Part shown: in pieces, positions 1 to 14,670 of the stretch
How positions within the stretch are numbered: position 1 is the first letter of the stretch
Layout: every line of letters starts with the position of its first letter
NCBI GenBank assembly: GCA_029210545.1
Contig: JARGFV010000063.1
Span: 1-14,670 of the forward strand
From: a bacterium
GTDB taxonomy: Bacteria > BMS3Abin14
DNA: 14,670 bases
Reading direction: 5' to 3'
Notes under the pieces: generated by a model
What the model saw: only the letters and a program-made list of their open reading frames with translations
Told to the model about the DNA's origin: nothing
The model's database searches: none
Made by a program: the position numbers and the translations under genes

Positions 1-119
1 CTCCACGGAAAGGGAAAAGCGTCGTTTTCCCTTTCCTTACAAATCAATGACTTATGGTGCGGGTCATTGATTTGGGCGCCCCGCGCGGGGCGCGTTGATG
101 GACTTTTTGCGAGTCCATC
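1..119 (-). repeat. Multi-hairpin MITE-like element, copy A (cut by left window edge)
   Basis: Copy of the element also seen at 9406-9558 and 11031-11182, in reverse orientation and truncated by the window start. On the + strand it shows a 12-bp stem (7-18 with 25-36), a 12-bp stem (40-51 with 63-74), an 18-bp perfect GC palindrome (76-93) and an end hairpin (94-104 with 112-122). It abuts the 3' end of dnaA. The 8 bp after its end (120-127) would be one copy of the target duplication; the other lies outside the window. Confidence 0.8.
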
Positions 120-143
120 AACTCTTAGCATCGCTAAGAGTTG
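119..143. terminator. Hairpin over the dnaA stop codon
   Basis: Perfect 11-bp inverted repeat (119-129 with 133-143) around a 3-nt loop. It includes the last codons and TAG stop of dnaA. No T tract follows on the dnaA strand, so it may protect or process the 3' end rather than act as a classical intrinsic terminator. Its left arm overlaps the presumed target site of repeat copy A. Confidence 0.5.
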
Positions 144-9356: not shown

Positions 9357-9405
9357 AACAACTGAACAGGTCGACATAACGCCATACCCTTGTAATTTGA
9401 AAGGT

Positions 9406-9558
9406 GATGGACTCGCAAAAAGTCCATCAACGCGCCCCGCGCGGGGCGCCCAAATCAATGACCCGCACTCTAAGTCATTGATTTGTAAGGAAAGGGAAAA
9501 CGACGCTTTTTCCTTTCCGTGGAGCGAAAAGTCCCGGACTGGACTTTTCGCGACTCTA
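9406..9558 (+). repeat. Multi-hairpin MITE-like element, copy B (153 nt)
   Basis: Five consecutive hairpins: 9405-9413 with 9421-9429; palindrome 9432-9449; 9451-9462 with 9474-9485; 9489-9500 with 9507-9518 (one G.T pair); 9524-9534 with 9541-9551. The ends are related inverted repeats with core TCGCAAAAAGTCC at the left and TCGCGAAAAGTCC at the right read inverted. Flanks TGAAAGGT (9398-9405) and TAAAAGGT (9559-9566) match at 7 of 8 positions, as an aged target duplication. No coding capacity. Confidence 0.9.
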
Positions 9559-9701: not shown

Positions 9702-9747
9702 TGGACTTTTTATACCTTCTATATTACTTTTCTAAACTCAACGATGA

Positions 9748-9940
9748 TAGGGTCGCAAAAAGTCCGTGCTGGCCTTTCGCTCAACGGAAAGGAAAAAGCG
9801 GGGTTTTTCCTTTCCTCACGGATCGCTGACATATTTGGCGGTCATCGATCCGGGCGCCGCTCCCAGGCGCGGCAGTTTTCACTGGTCATTGATTTGGGCG
9901 CCTCGCGCAGGGCGCGTTGATGATTTTTTACAAAGCCATC
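9748..9940 (-). repeat. Multi-hairpin MITE-like element, copy D (193 nt, subfamily II)
   Basis: Reverse orientation relative to B. It has the same ends but is longer: after the end hairpin, GC palindrome and one arm of the third stem (9885-9896) it carries a second GC stem (9854-9858 with 9866-9870), a variant third stem (9819-9830 with 9841-9852, 11 of 12 paired) and a perfect variant fourth stem (9786-9797 with 9804-9815). It is flanked by perfect 8-bp direct repeats AACGATGA (9740-9747, 9941-9948), the clearest target duplication in the window. Confidence 0.9.
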
Positions 9941-10026
9941 AACGATGATGATCGATGATCCAGGGGGTGGTTCCAGGGCCGCCCCCTTGTCTGTTTCCAT
10001 TAAAACACCTGTTTTTAAAGGGAAAA

Positions 10027-11008: not shown

Positions 11009-11030
11009 AAAAAGCAGCGGTATGAAGCTT

Positions 11031-11182
11031 GATGACTTCGCAAAAAGTCATCATCGCGCCCCGCGCGGGGCGCCCAAATCAATGACCCGCACCGTAAGTC
11101 ATTGATTTGTGAGGAAAGGGAAAACGACGCTTTTCCCTTTCCGTGGAGCGAAAAGTCCCGGATTGGACTTTTTGCGACTCTA
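11031..11182 (+). repeat. Multi-hairpin MITE-like element, copy C (152 nt), between parA and parB
   Basis: Five hairpins: 11031-11038 with 11045-11052; palindrome 11056-11073; 11075-11086 with 11098-11109; 11113-11124 with 11131-11142, perfect; 11148-11158 with 11165-11175, one wobble. Flanks TGAAGCTT (11023-11030) and TCAAGCTT (11183-11190) match at 7 of 8. The first stem differs from copy B on both arms. Confidence 0.9.
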
Positions 11183-11195
11183 TCAAGCTTGTCCC

Positions 11196-12205: not shown

Positions 12206-12646
12206 ATGAATCGCAAGGAACCTGCAGCATCCCGCGGTGAGATCAAGGCGTTTCTCGGGGAAGGAACCGATTTCAAGGGTGTCCTCACGTTCGAGGGCAC
12301 CGTTCGCATCGACGGAAAGCTCGAGGGCGAGGTCTACACAAAGGACACCCTCATCGTGGGTGAGAGCGCCGTGGTCAACGCCGAGATCAATGTGAACACC
12401 ATCGTCATCTCCGGCGTCGTGCGGGGCAACATCAACGCTACAGGGAAGATCGAGGTTCACCGTCCCGGAAAGCTGTTCGGCAACGTCAAGACCCCCAGTA
12501 TCTTTATCGAGGAGGGGGTTATCTTCGAGGGCAACTGTGCCATGGCTTTCGACGCGGGTGAGGATAAGAAGGTGTCCCCCTTCACCTCCCGGACGGGTAA
12601 AACCCTTTCCGAGGAGGAGCTGGCGTCAGCGTCAAAAACCGATTGA
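12206..12646 (+). CDS. Bactofilin family cytoskeletal protein
   Basis: Bactofilins polymerise without nucleotide into filaments that act in cell shape, polarity and, in some Myxococcota, positioning of ParAB-parS. The 146 residues have the short right-handed beta-helix core (about 25-115) built from hydrophobic repeats: FKGVLTFEGTVRIDGKLEGEV, LIVGESAVVNAEI, ISGVVRGNINATGKIEV, LFGNVKTPSIFIEEGVIFEGNC. The N tail (about 1-20) and C tail (about 120-146) are polar. GGAGG lies about 10 nt before the ATG. Its place right after parB suggests a link to segregation or polar organisation; that link is inference. Confidence 0.95.
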   Translation: MNRKEPAASRGEIKAFLGEGTDFKGVLTFEGTVRIDGKLEGEVYTKDTLIVGESAVVNAEINVNTIVISGVVRGNINATGKIEVHRPGKLFGNVKTPSIFIEEGVIFEGNCAMAFDAGEDKKVSPFTSRTGKTLSEEELASASKTD

Positions 12647-12652
12647 AGAATT

Positions 12653-12694
12653 CTGTGGGATACAGTATATTGTATACGGTATTCGGGTCCACAG
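12653..12694. repeat. Heptad array folded as a hairpin before atpI
   Basis: Six units from CTGTGGG to TCCACAG, including ATACAGT and ATACGGT. The same bases form a dyad: ATACAGTATA, loop TTG, TATACGGTAT with one mismatch, capped at the base by CTGTGG with CCACAG. It ends 1 nt before the GTG chosen for atpI. Confidence 0.65.
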
Positions 12695-12695
12695 G

Positions 12696-13073
12696 GTGAC
12701 GTCCTTTGAGCGTTATGTGCGCCGGGTCTTTTTCGGCACCCTGTCGCTGGTCCTTTTGTTTGCAGGCATCTTCCTGCTTCTGGGATATAAGCCGTGGGCC
12801 CGGGGAGCTGTTCTGGGCGGAGCGGCCAGCCTGCTGAACCTGCTTGTCATGGCGGGGGATGTCCGCAGGCAGGGAGGGGCGGCAGAAATTCAGGGCGTGC
12901 GGCCGACTTACGGGAGGTATGCCCTGAGGATGGCAGGCATCGCCGCGGTCCTTGTCTACTCCGTCACCAACGAAAACGTCGCCCTTTGGGCAACAGTGCC
13001 GGCACTTTTCGCGTCGCAGTTCGTGATGACCTGCGGGGAGCTGCTGGGAGGCAGTGAACAGGAACCTTCGTGA
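12696..13073 (+). CDS. atpI: AtpI-like small membrane protein
   Basis: Four hydrophobic segments (about 10-30, 36-58, 75-92, 97-118) in 125 residues, directly before atpB, identify it as the AtpI-type protein that accompanies F-type ATP synthase membrane-sector genes and is thought to help c-ring assembly or ion supply. Sequence similarity to named AtpI proteins is not obvious by eye. The frame stays open back to 12537, but that overlaps the bactofilin gene and reads as unrelated Arg/Pro-rich sequence. GTG 12696 (MTSFERYVRRVFFG) is the most reasonable start, though its RBS is poor and it immediately follows a hairpin. The stop lies 1 nt before the atpB ATG. Confidence 0.75.
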   Translation: MTSFERYVRRVFFGTLSLVLLFAGIFLLLGYKPWARGAVLGGAASLLNLLVMAGDVRRQGGAAEIQGVRPTYGRYALRMAGIAAVLVYSVTNENVALWATVPALFASQFVMTCGELLGGSEQEPS

Positions 13074-13074
13074 T

Positions 13075-13746
13075 ATGGGCGATGTGACCCACGTACCGAC
13101 ATTTGTTTTCGAGCTCTTCGGGATAACCCTTACGGTGAACTATGTCACCGTGGTCAACACCTGGATCATCATGGCGGTCCTCATCGTGGTGGCCCTTATC
13201 GTCCGGCGGCGCATCCAGAAAACACCAGGGCCCGCTCAAAGGATGGCCGAGCTGTACATCTCGGCCATGGACGGCCTTACAAAGGAAACGCTGGAGACCA
13301 CAAGCAGAGCCTATTTCCCCCTGGTGGCCACCATGTTCATTTTCCTGCTTTTGTGCAACTGGTGGGGCATCATCCCGGGCTTTGAGGAGCCCACCAAGGA
13401 CCTCAATACGCCGCTCAGCCTGGGGATCATGGGCTTTTTCCTTACCCACACGGCCGCCATCCGGGCCAAGGGGATCGGCACCTACCTCAAGGAGTACACA
13501 CACCCCTTTATCATCATGGCTCCCCTCAACGTGGTGGGCGAGCTCGCGAAGGTGGTCTCCATTTCCTTCCGTCTTTTCGGGAACATCATGGGGGGAGCGA
13601 TCATCATAACGGTTGTTTCCTGGATGGTTTACAGCCTGGTCCTTCCGCCCTTCCTCTACGTGTTCTTCGGCATGTTTGTCGGCACGGTGCAGGCTTTTGT
13701 GTTTACCATGCTGACCATCACCTACATCGCAGTGGCGACAAAATAG
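13075..13746 (+). CDS. atpB: F-type ATP synthase subunit a
   Basis: Subunit a forms the ion half-channels against the c ring. The 223 residues include the signature FRLFGN with the essential arginine at R166 and conserved N170, and VQAFVFTMLTITYIA near the end with Q206. Earlier parts are typical: PGPAQRMAELYISAM, FPLVATMFIFLLLCNWWGIIPG, HPFIIMAPLNVVGELAK. ATG 13075 follows the atpI stop by 1 nt and has AGGAA 10 nt upstream; a GTG at 13054 in frame is poorly placed. Unusual: the residue 9 after the arginine is A175 where E. coli has Glu219, and the residue 7 before the glutamine is G199 where E. coli has His245. atpE follows after 9 nt. Confidence 0.96.
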   Translation: MGDVTHVPTFVFELFGITLTVNYVTVVNTWIIMAVLIVVALIVRRRIQKTPGPAQRMAELYISAMDGLTKETLETTSRAYFPLVATMFIFLLLCNWWGIIPGFEEPTKDLNTPLSLGIMGFFLTHTAAIRAKGIGTYLKEYTHPFIIMAPLNVVGELAKVVSISFRLFGNIMGGAIIITVVSWMVYSLVLPPFLYVFFGMFVGTVQAFVFTMLTITYIAVATK

Positions 13747-13755
13747 GAGCGACGA

Positions 13756-14490
13756 GTGGACCCGGCATTGACCGTCAAAGCACTGTATGCTCTTGGGGCC
13801 GCCTTCGCCGTCGGTTTCGGAGCTGTCGGCCCGGGGACCGGCATGGGCATGTCCGCGGCCTCGGCCGTGGAAGGGATGGGGACGCAGCCCAAAGTCTCGT
13901 CGGACCTCTTCCGGATCATGCTCATCGGGCAGGGAGCGACCTCGACACCACCGACCTTTGCTCTGGTCATCGCCATCCTGCTGCTCTTCGGGACCGGGGA
14001 GACGACCGAGCTGATCAAGGGTTTTGCCGGCCTGGGAGCGGGGATCTCCATTGGAGCCGCTTCCTTCGCCTCGGGCCTCGGAAGCTCCCTGCCGGCTTCC
14101 ATGGCCTGTGAGGCCATCGCGCGCCAGCCTCACCTGCGCAGGCCCTTCACAACCCTGATGCTTGTGGGACAGGCCCTCAGTCAGACACCCCTGATCTTCG
14201 CCCTGCTGGTGTCGTTCCTGCTCATCTTCATGCCTTCGAAGCCTGATGCGGGGTTCGTGAATTACGTAACGGTTCTGTCGGCGGGGATCTGCATGGGGTT
14301 CGGATCCATCGGGTCTTCCATCGGGTCGGGGTTCGCCGCGGAATCGGCCATTGTGGGAATCAGGCACCACCGGGAGCCTGAAAAGGCCTCGGGCCCCATA
14401 ACGCGGACCATGCTGCTGGGGCTGGCCGTGGCCCAGTCACCAAGTGTTTTCGCGCTGGTCATTTCATTTGTTCTGCTGCTGGCGGTCTGA
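13756..14490 (+). CDS. atpE: ATP synthase subunit c, three-hairpin (triplicated) form without helix-2 carboxylates
   Basis: The c ring carries ions past subunit a. Bacterial c is usually one hairpin of 70-95 residues; this 244-residue protein holds three (about 5-80, 84-160, 165-244). Repeat 1 shows the typical GPGTGMGMSAASAVEG and repeat 2 the IARQP loop. Against a Na+ type c (LGQAIAES), the ion-binding glutamate position is S63, Q143 and Q227 in the three hairpins, so no helix 2 has a carboxylate. An extra glutamate, E196, lies in the first helix of hairpin 3 (GSGFAAESA). The GTG start has GGAG 6 nt upstream and follows atpB by 9 nt. The frame is clean, so this is not a broken gene. Confidence 0.93.
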   Translation: MDPALTVKALYALGAAFAVGFGAVGPGTGMGMSAASAVEGMGTQPKVSSDLFRIMLIGQGATSTPPTFALVIAILLLFGTGETTELIKGFAGLGAGISIGAASFASGLGSSLPASMACEAIARQPHLRRPFTTLMLVGQALSQTPLIFALLVSFLLIFMPSKPDAGFVNYVTVLSAGICMGFGSIGSSIGSGFAAESAIVGIRHHREPEKASGPITRTMLLGLAVAQSPSVFALVISFVLLLAV

Positions 14491-14504: not shown

Positions 14505-14525
14505 GGGAGTTTACTGTTTAGAGTT
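14505..14525 (+). repeat. Short heptanucleotide array after atpE
   Basis: GGGAGTT, TACTGTT, TAGAGTT head to tail, all ending in GTT or following the same pattern. It leads straight into repeat copy E, whose presumed target site (14519-14526) lies inside it. Confidence 0.55.
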
Positions 14526-14526
14526 T

Positions 14527-14670
14527 GATGACTTCGCAAAAAGTCCATCAACGCGCCCCGCGCGGGGTGCCCAAATCAATGACAAGCCGCGCCTGGGAAG
14601 GGCGCCCGGATCGATGACCGATAAATATGTCAGCGATCCGTGAGGGAAGGAAAAACCCCGCTTTTTCCTT
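14527..14670 (+). repeat. Multi-hairpin MITE-like element, copy E (subfamily II, cut by right window edge)
   Basis: Begins like copy C (GATGACTTCGC) and has the GC palindrome with one change, then a single arm of the third stem followed by the extra GC stem, the GGATCG-type third stem and the AAGGAAAAA fourth stem. This is the same composite order as copy D. The first stem is imperfect because only one arm carries the GATGACT form. The element continues beyond the window. Confidence 0.85.

What the first reader, a model, noticed from the sequence alone, without database searches (positions are those of the whole stretch)
13756..14490. Triplicated ATP synthase c subunit with no helix-2 carboxylate and a glutamate moved to helix 1
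Seen: three tandem hairpins in one 244-residue protein, and Ser, Gln and Gln (63, 143, 227) at the position of the ion-binding Glu/Asp. The only new acidic residue inside a membrane helix is E196, in helix 1 of hairpin 3, facing Q227 in helix 2. In Na+ rotors helix 1 gives Gln and helix 2 gives Glu, so hairpin 3 looks like a swap. Known: multi-hairpin c/K subunits occur in V/A-type rotors, and E. coli c tolerates moving the carboxylate to helix 1 (A24D with D61 changed), though at a different level of the helix. Inference: a rotor with one ion site per three hairpins would have an unusually low ion-to-ATP ratio, favouring ATP-driven pumping, unless a second normal c gene exists.
Basis: partly seen in the sequence, partly recalled or inferred. 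Interest (0 to 1): 0.8.

Follow-up and report, generated by a model that had tools for sequence, protein, structure and literature searches.

The report
Siteless triple subunit of hybrid rotor
This gene encodes three fused rotor units of a bacterial ATP synthase that have all lost the ion-carrying acid; it is made next to a normal rotor gene, so the motor's ring is probably built from both, and dozens of other bacteria have similar genes with two to six fused units, which tests how large a dead sector a rotary motor can tolerate.

Summary
In detail: 13756-14490 encodes a 244-residue protein of three fused c hairpins with Ser, Gln and Gln at the ion-site carboxylate. The interpretation needs changing. 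A normal single-hairpin c gene (c2) with a complete two-carboxylate Na+ motif lies immediately downstream: the contig ends inside a repeat between the two genes, and relatives show the order unbroken (a-c1-c2-b'-b-delta-alpha-gamma-beta-epsilon). The triple protein is best read as the c1 subunit of a hybrid c ring of the Acetobacterium woodii type; the best PDB match by sequence and fold is 4bem_J, A. woodii c1. Seventy-one complete relatives in several phyla carry 2 to 6 hairpins, 0 to 3 carboxylates, and always an intact c2. Thirteen have no carboxylate, by repeated loss. E196 is conserved in the window's family, but sits five residues and about 140 degrees from the ion-site position, and also occurs where a site is present; the 'swap' is not supported. 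Likely effect (inferred): a three-hairpin siteless sector that lowers ions per ATP. A new variant of a known kind, notable because one Glu-to-Gln per ring stops a lab ATP synthase, and because several genomes pair one F1 with two Fo sets.

The parts
13756..14490 (+). c1: three fused c-type hairpins (residues about 3-78, 86-157, 167-243), no helix-2 carboxylate
   Evidence: ORF; Pfam ATP-synt_C three times; AF2 model pLDDT 93; best PDB match 4bem_J, A. woodii c1, by sequence and fold
13942..13944 (+). S63, ion-site position of hairpin 1 (Glu in G004/G009 of the same family)
14182..14184 (+). Q143, ion-site position of hairpin 2
14434..14436 (+). Q227, ion-site position of hairpin 3
14341..14343 (+). 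E196 in helix 1 of hairpin 3; aligns with Gly37 of Ilyobacter numbering, not with the ion site
13054..13746 (+). a1: ATP synthase subunit a with intact stator arginine (SISFRLFGN)
   Evidence: Pfam ATP-synt_A 165.7 bits; motif
12537..13073 (+). AtpI-like protein (ATP-synt_I); true start probably downstream of the listed GTG
14520..14670 (+). left part of a ~160-bp interspersed repeat that ends the contig; its right part begins contig C91, which carries c2-b'-b-delta-alpha-gamma-beta-epsilon
   Evidence: full copy at window 11026-11185

Best explanation
The protein is the c1 subunit of a hybrid (heteromeric) rotor ring of an F1Fo ATP synthase. It occupies three neighbouring positions of the ring, and copies of the single-hairpin c2, encoded next to it, fill the rest. 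Only c2 carries ions, most likely Na+, through a two-carboxylate site. c1 gives a sector of three hairpins with neutral side chains at the ion level that can pass the stator arginine and the lipid without taking or giving an ion. Each turn of the ring, still worth three ATP, then moves fewer ions than it has hairpins. If one c1 sits in an 11-hairpin ring (an assumption from known Na+ F-rings), about 8 ions per 3 ATP. That favours ATP-driven pumping, or synthesis at a high ion gradient. Shown: sequence, operon, conservation, fold. Inferred: co-assembly, ring size, ion, gear ratio.
For: Next gene is c2: own genome C91, with contigs C63 and C91 ending in two halves of one repeat in matching orientation; order unbroken in relatives. 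c2 keeps V63, E65, S66, T67, Y70 in 71 of 71 loci and E or Q at 32 in 71 of 71, while c1 hairpins are siteless in 190 of 267, with Gln in 168 of those 190. Closest solved relative is A. woodii c1 by sequence and by fold (Foldseek E 9e-8, Z 16.7). A. woodii and C. aceticum c1 have one intact hairpin and one with Glu to Gln, beside a normal c2 (PMC7911925). Purifying selection on c1. Subunit a keeps the arginine.
Against: No biochemistry: co-assembly of c1 and c2, ring size and c1 copy number are untested. In the Bacillus PS3 ring fused from ten hairpins, one Glu-to-Gln abolished ATP synthesis (PMC8809890), so a three-hairpin gap might not support synthesis at all. The c1-c2 junction is not in one contig of this genome; it is inferred from the repeat halves and from relatives.
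Confidence: 0.8

Rival explanations
1. Relocated carboxylate: E196 in helix 1 of hairpin 3 takes over as the ion-carrying acid, so c1 has one site per three hairpins.
For: E196 is present in every family member whose third hairpin was read. Glu or Asp at this column is found only in last hairpins (25 of 71), never in c2 or other hairpins. c1 proteins with no site have it more often (10 of 13 against 16 of 55, Fisher p 0.003).
Against: Five residues (about 7.5 A) and about 140 degrees away from the ion-site position on an ideal helix, unlike E. coli A24, which faces the site. Also present in relatives with an intact site (G004, G009, Desulfobacterota). The association rests on at most 4 to 7 independent comparisons and does not hold up on the tree.
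Confidence: 0.08
2. c1 is not part of the working ring but an assembly or closing factor, or sets ring size as a template.
For: Its sites are dispensable (13 of 71 have none) while hairpin number is kept within lineages.
Against: In A. woodii c1 is in the crystallised ring (4bem chain J beside nine c2 chains). The Gln-bearing sites and Na+-ligand neighbours are conserved rather than eroding.
Confidence: 0.1
3. Decaying pseudogene or redundant duplicate.
For: All carboxylates lost; loss occurred several times.
Against: dN/dS 0.07-0.22 at dS up to 1.9, open frames in whole families, conserved operon place.
Confidence: 0.02

Closest known systems
[quoted passage not shown] PDB 4bem; PMC7911925)
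   Same: Multi-hairpin c1 encoded just before single-hairpin c2 in one F-type operon; c1 partly siteless through Glu to Gln; Na+ ligand motif; best match by sequence and fold.
   Different: Here three hairpins (2 to 6 in the wider family) instead of two, no carboxylate left in c1, two-carboxylate c2 (Glu at position 32 instead of Gln), not an acetogenic clostridium.
Two-carboxylate Na+ c ring of Fusobacterium nucleatum (PMC3692424)
   Same: c2 carries the same E32 / E65-S66-T67-Y70 set.
   Different: The Fusobacterium ring is homomeric (11 identical c subunits).
V-type proteolipids (NtpK, Vma3 and relatives) and multi-hairpin archaeal c subunits (PMC2359735)
   Same: Fused hairpins with loss of sites in some; fold match to 2bl2.
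   Different: Here in an F-type operon beside a separate normal c; sequence is closer to F-type c.

Membership tests
Hybrid c1/c2 rotor (A. woodii type) | F-type operon with a multi-hairpin c gene beside a single-hairpin c gene | tested here: met
   Relatives: a-c1-c2-b'-b in one stretch; own genome: two contigs joined through repeat halves
Hybrid c1/c2 rotor (A. woodii type) | c1 has fewer ion sites than hairpins | tested here: met
   0 of 3 here; 77 of 267 hairpins active over 71 loci
Hybrid c1/c2 rotor (A. woodii type) | c2 has a complete Na+ motif (Q or E at 32, E65, S/T66, T67, Y70) | tested here: met
   71 of 71 loci; own c2 GIGEG...VAESTGIY
Hybrid c1/c2 rotor (A. woodii type) | Closest homology to A. 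woodii c1/c2 | tested here: met
   4bem_J top in PDB by sequence and fold
Hybrid c1/c2 rotor (A. woodii type) | c1 and c2 co-assemble in one ring | not testable with these tools
   needs a purified ring; not done
Hybrid c1/c2 rotor (A. woodii type) | Na+ as coupling ion | not testable with these tools
   only the ligand motif was read
E. coli A24D/D61-type relocated carboxylate | Acid on helix 1 facing the helix-2 site | tested here: not met
   E196 aligns five residues past the Gln32 position, about 140 degrees round
V-type c/K subunit | Member of a V/A-type operon | tested here: not met
   Operon is F-type; a separate V/A-type K gene sits on contig C16

The most novel reading that the evidence does not exclude
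One F1 motor shared by two interchangeable Fo motors with different gear ratio and perhaps different ion: a hybrid Na+-type Fo (a1-c1-c2, low ions per ATP) and a remote ordinary Fo (a2-c). In the window's family and in three Desulfobacterota chromosomes there is one F1 gamma gene but two a genes and two c sets, and the remote a2-c locus, where read, has no b, delta or F1 genes of its own. Cells could then choose between synthesis and pumping by swapping rotors on the same F1.
Probability: 0.35. Interest if true: 0.88.

Novelty: new variant of a known kind. Interest (0 to 1): 0.64.

Why it matters
In a lab ATP synthase a single Glu-to-Gln in one of ten hairpins stops ATP synthesis (PMC8809890). 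Here whole lineages have kept rotor proteins with two to five neighbouring hairpins without a site. These are natural test cases for how elastic coupling lets a rotor cross a dead sector, and for how the ion-to-ATP ratio evolves by losing sites rather than by changing ring size. The series from 3 to 0 carboxylates in c1, at constant c2, makes the question directly testable.

Tried and rejected
The E196 swap was tested by alignment, helix geometry, conservation and a tree-aware comparison and is not favoured. Pseudogene rejected by dN/dS. The possibility that the triple c is the only c gene was rejected. Chromosome-like assembly G008 shows c1 broken in hairpin 3 with no c2 and F1 175 kb away; the record holds runs of N and is 81% complete, so it is treated as an assembly fault, not as evidence. 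Literature searches for F-type c proteins with three or more hairpins, or for two Fo sets on one F1, found nothing in the held library (one search's terms were too loose to be informative); the key survey (Brandt and Muller 2015) was met only as a citation and the 4bem paper is not held, so absence of earlier description is not proven. From memory, that survey reports a dozen species with one Fo- and one Vo-type c gene in an operon.

Full report
What is in the window. The window is one contig (C63) of a 2.7-Mb draft genome, from an origin-type region: dnaA, rnpA, yidD, yidC, mnmE, mnmG, rsmG, parA, parB, a bactofilin, then AtpI, subunit a and the triple c (gene names other than the atp genes and bactofilin were read from the translations). 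The triple c ORF, 13756-14490, is real and as described: three ATP-synt_C matches, Ser63, Gln143 and Gln227 at the carboxylate position, and a confident three-hairpin model (pLDDT 93).

The missing gene. Contig C91 of the same genome begins (read in reverse) with the other half of that repeat in the matching orientation, followed by a single-hairpin c gene, b', b, delta, alpha, gamma, beta and epsilon. In relatives the order is unbroken: bactofilin, AtpI, a, triple c, single c, b', b and, where the stretch is long enough, delta, alpha, gamma, beta. The single c (c2) reads GIGEGF...LVGQAVAESTGIYA: all the Na+ ligands of the Ilyobacter ring, with Glu in place of Gln at position 32, the two-carboxylate motif of Fusobacterium nucleatum (PMC3692424).

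Family. A scan of genome contigs gave 79 loci in Desulfobacterota, Hydrogenedentota, Planctomycetota, Cloacimonadota, Coatesbacteria, Lentisphaerae, Omnitrophota and others (names as in the record titles). In 71 with a complete c1, c1 has 2 to 6 hairpins and is followed by c2, the first matched c2 codon lying 30 to 270 bases after the c1 stop. c2 is invariant at V63, E65, S66, T67 and Y70 in all 71. Of 267 c1 hairpins 77 keep a carboxylate; the 190 others carry Gln (168), Ser (11) or Gly (11). Thus the siteless state is held at Gln, not drifting. Thirteen c1 proteins have no carboxylate. On a tree of the neighbouring a subunits the state changes at least seven times, and the window's own clade (SQQ) is sister to one with a full site in hairpin 1 (EQQ; G004, G009). 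c1 is under purifying selection (dN/dS 0.07-0.22), and the a subunits next to it keep the stator arginine.

What it is. By sequence and by structure (Foldseek rank 1; Z 16.7) the closest solved protein is 4bem chain J, the c1 subunit of the A. woodii ring. That enzyme and the one of C. aceticum have a two-hairpin c1 with one site lost by Glu to Gln, beside a normal c2 (PMC7911925); the A. woodii ring has 10 sites, 3.3 Na+ per ATP (PMC7793690). The window's gene is the same kind of subunit, extended to three hairpins and stripped of its last site.

E196. It aligns with Gly in GQGFAAGK of A. woodii c2, that is five residues on the cytoplasmic side of the Gln32 position, and on an ideal helix it points about 140 degrees away, whereas E. 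coli A24 points to the site (the E. coli and Ilyobacter numbering is from memory). It is fixed in the family, including members with an intact site in hairpin 1, and acids at this column occur in 25 of 71 last hairpins but never in c2 or in other hairpins. Acids are commoner where c1 has no site (10 of 13 against 16 of 55), but the comparison does not stand once relatedness is allowed for. A role at the c1-c2 boundary or near the loop is more likely than ion carriage, but this is a guess.

How it may work (inference). A ring with one c1 has a sector of three neutral positions. While it passes subunit a, no ion is exchanged, and torque must come from the stalks' stored strain or from F1. Ions per ATP fall to (number of c2)/3. 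In Bacillus PS3 a single Gln in ten stops synthesis (PMC8809890), so either these enzymes have adapted to cross the gap or they act mainly as pumps.

A second Fo. In the nine other family genomes counted there is one main F1 gamma gene (none found in one incomplete genome, a weaker second match in another) but two a genes or more, fragments included. In five genomes whose surroundings were read, the second a, next to an ordinary c, lies beside nuo-like and multihaem-cytochrome-like genes with no b, delta or F1 genes detected. In this genome that c is on contig C54 and its a gene would lie beyond the contig end. Three Desulfobacterota chromosomes likewise have one gamma, two full a genes, and a hybrid cassette AtpI-a-c1-c2-b'-b apart from F1. 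In five genomes of other lineages there is one a and one gamma, so the hybrid rotor is the only F-type Fo found. A shared F1 is therefore possible but untested.

Noticed in passing
window 63-125, 9405-9557, 9745-9942, 11026-11185, 14520-14670: An interspersed repeat of about 160 bases with a palindromic GC-rich part, in both orientations between genes; it also ends contigs and probably broke the assembly.
   Followed up: partly
G000:C54:15974-16165 (L001/L008) and L158-L162: A second, ordinary a-c pair without b, delta or F1 genes, beside cytochrome- and nuo-like genes, in genomes that have a single main F1.
   Followed up: partly
G000:C16:4716-4895 (L003): A third c-type gene followed by a V/A-type E-like subunit: the genome also seems to have a V/A-type ATPase.
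   Followed up: no
L062 5362-6837: A c1 with six hairpins, only the first of which keeps a carboxylate (five siteless in a row).
   Followed up: no
window 14353-14376 and family members: The loop of hairpin 3 is two residues longer (RHHREPE) than in canonical c, throughout the family.
   Followed up: no
G008:C1:541958-542608 (L164): c1 is cut in hairpin 3 and c2 was not found; F1 genes lie 175 kb away; probably a scaffolding fault.
   Followed up: partly
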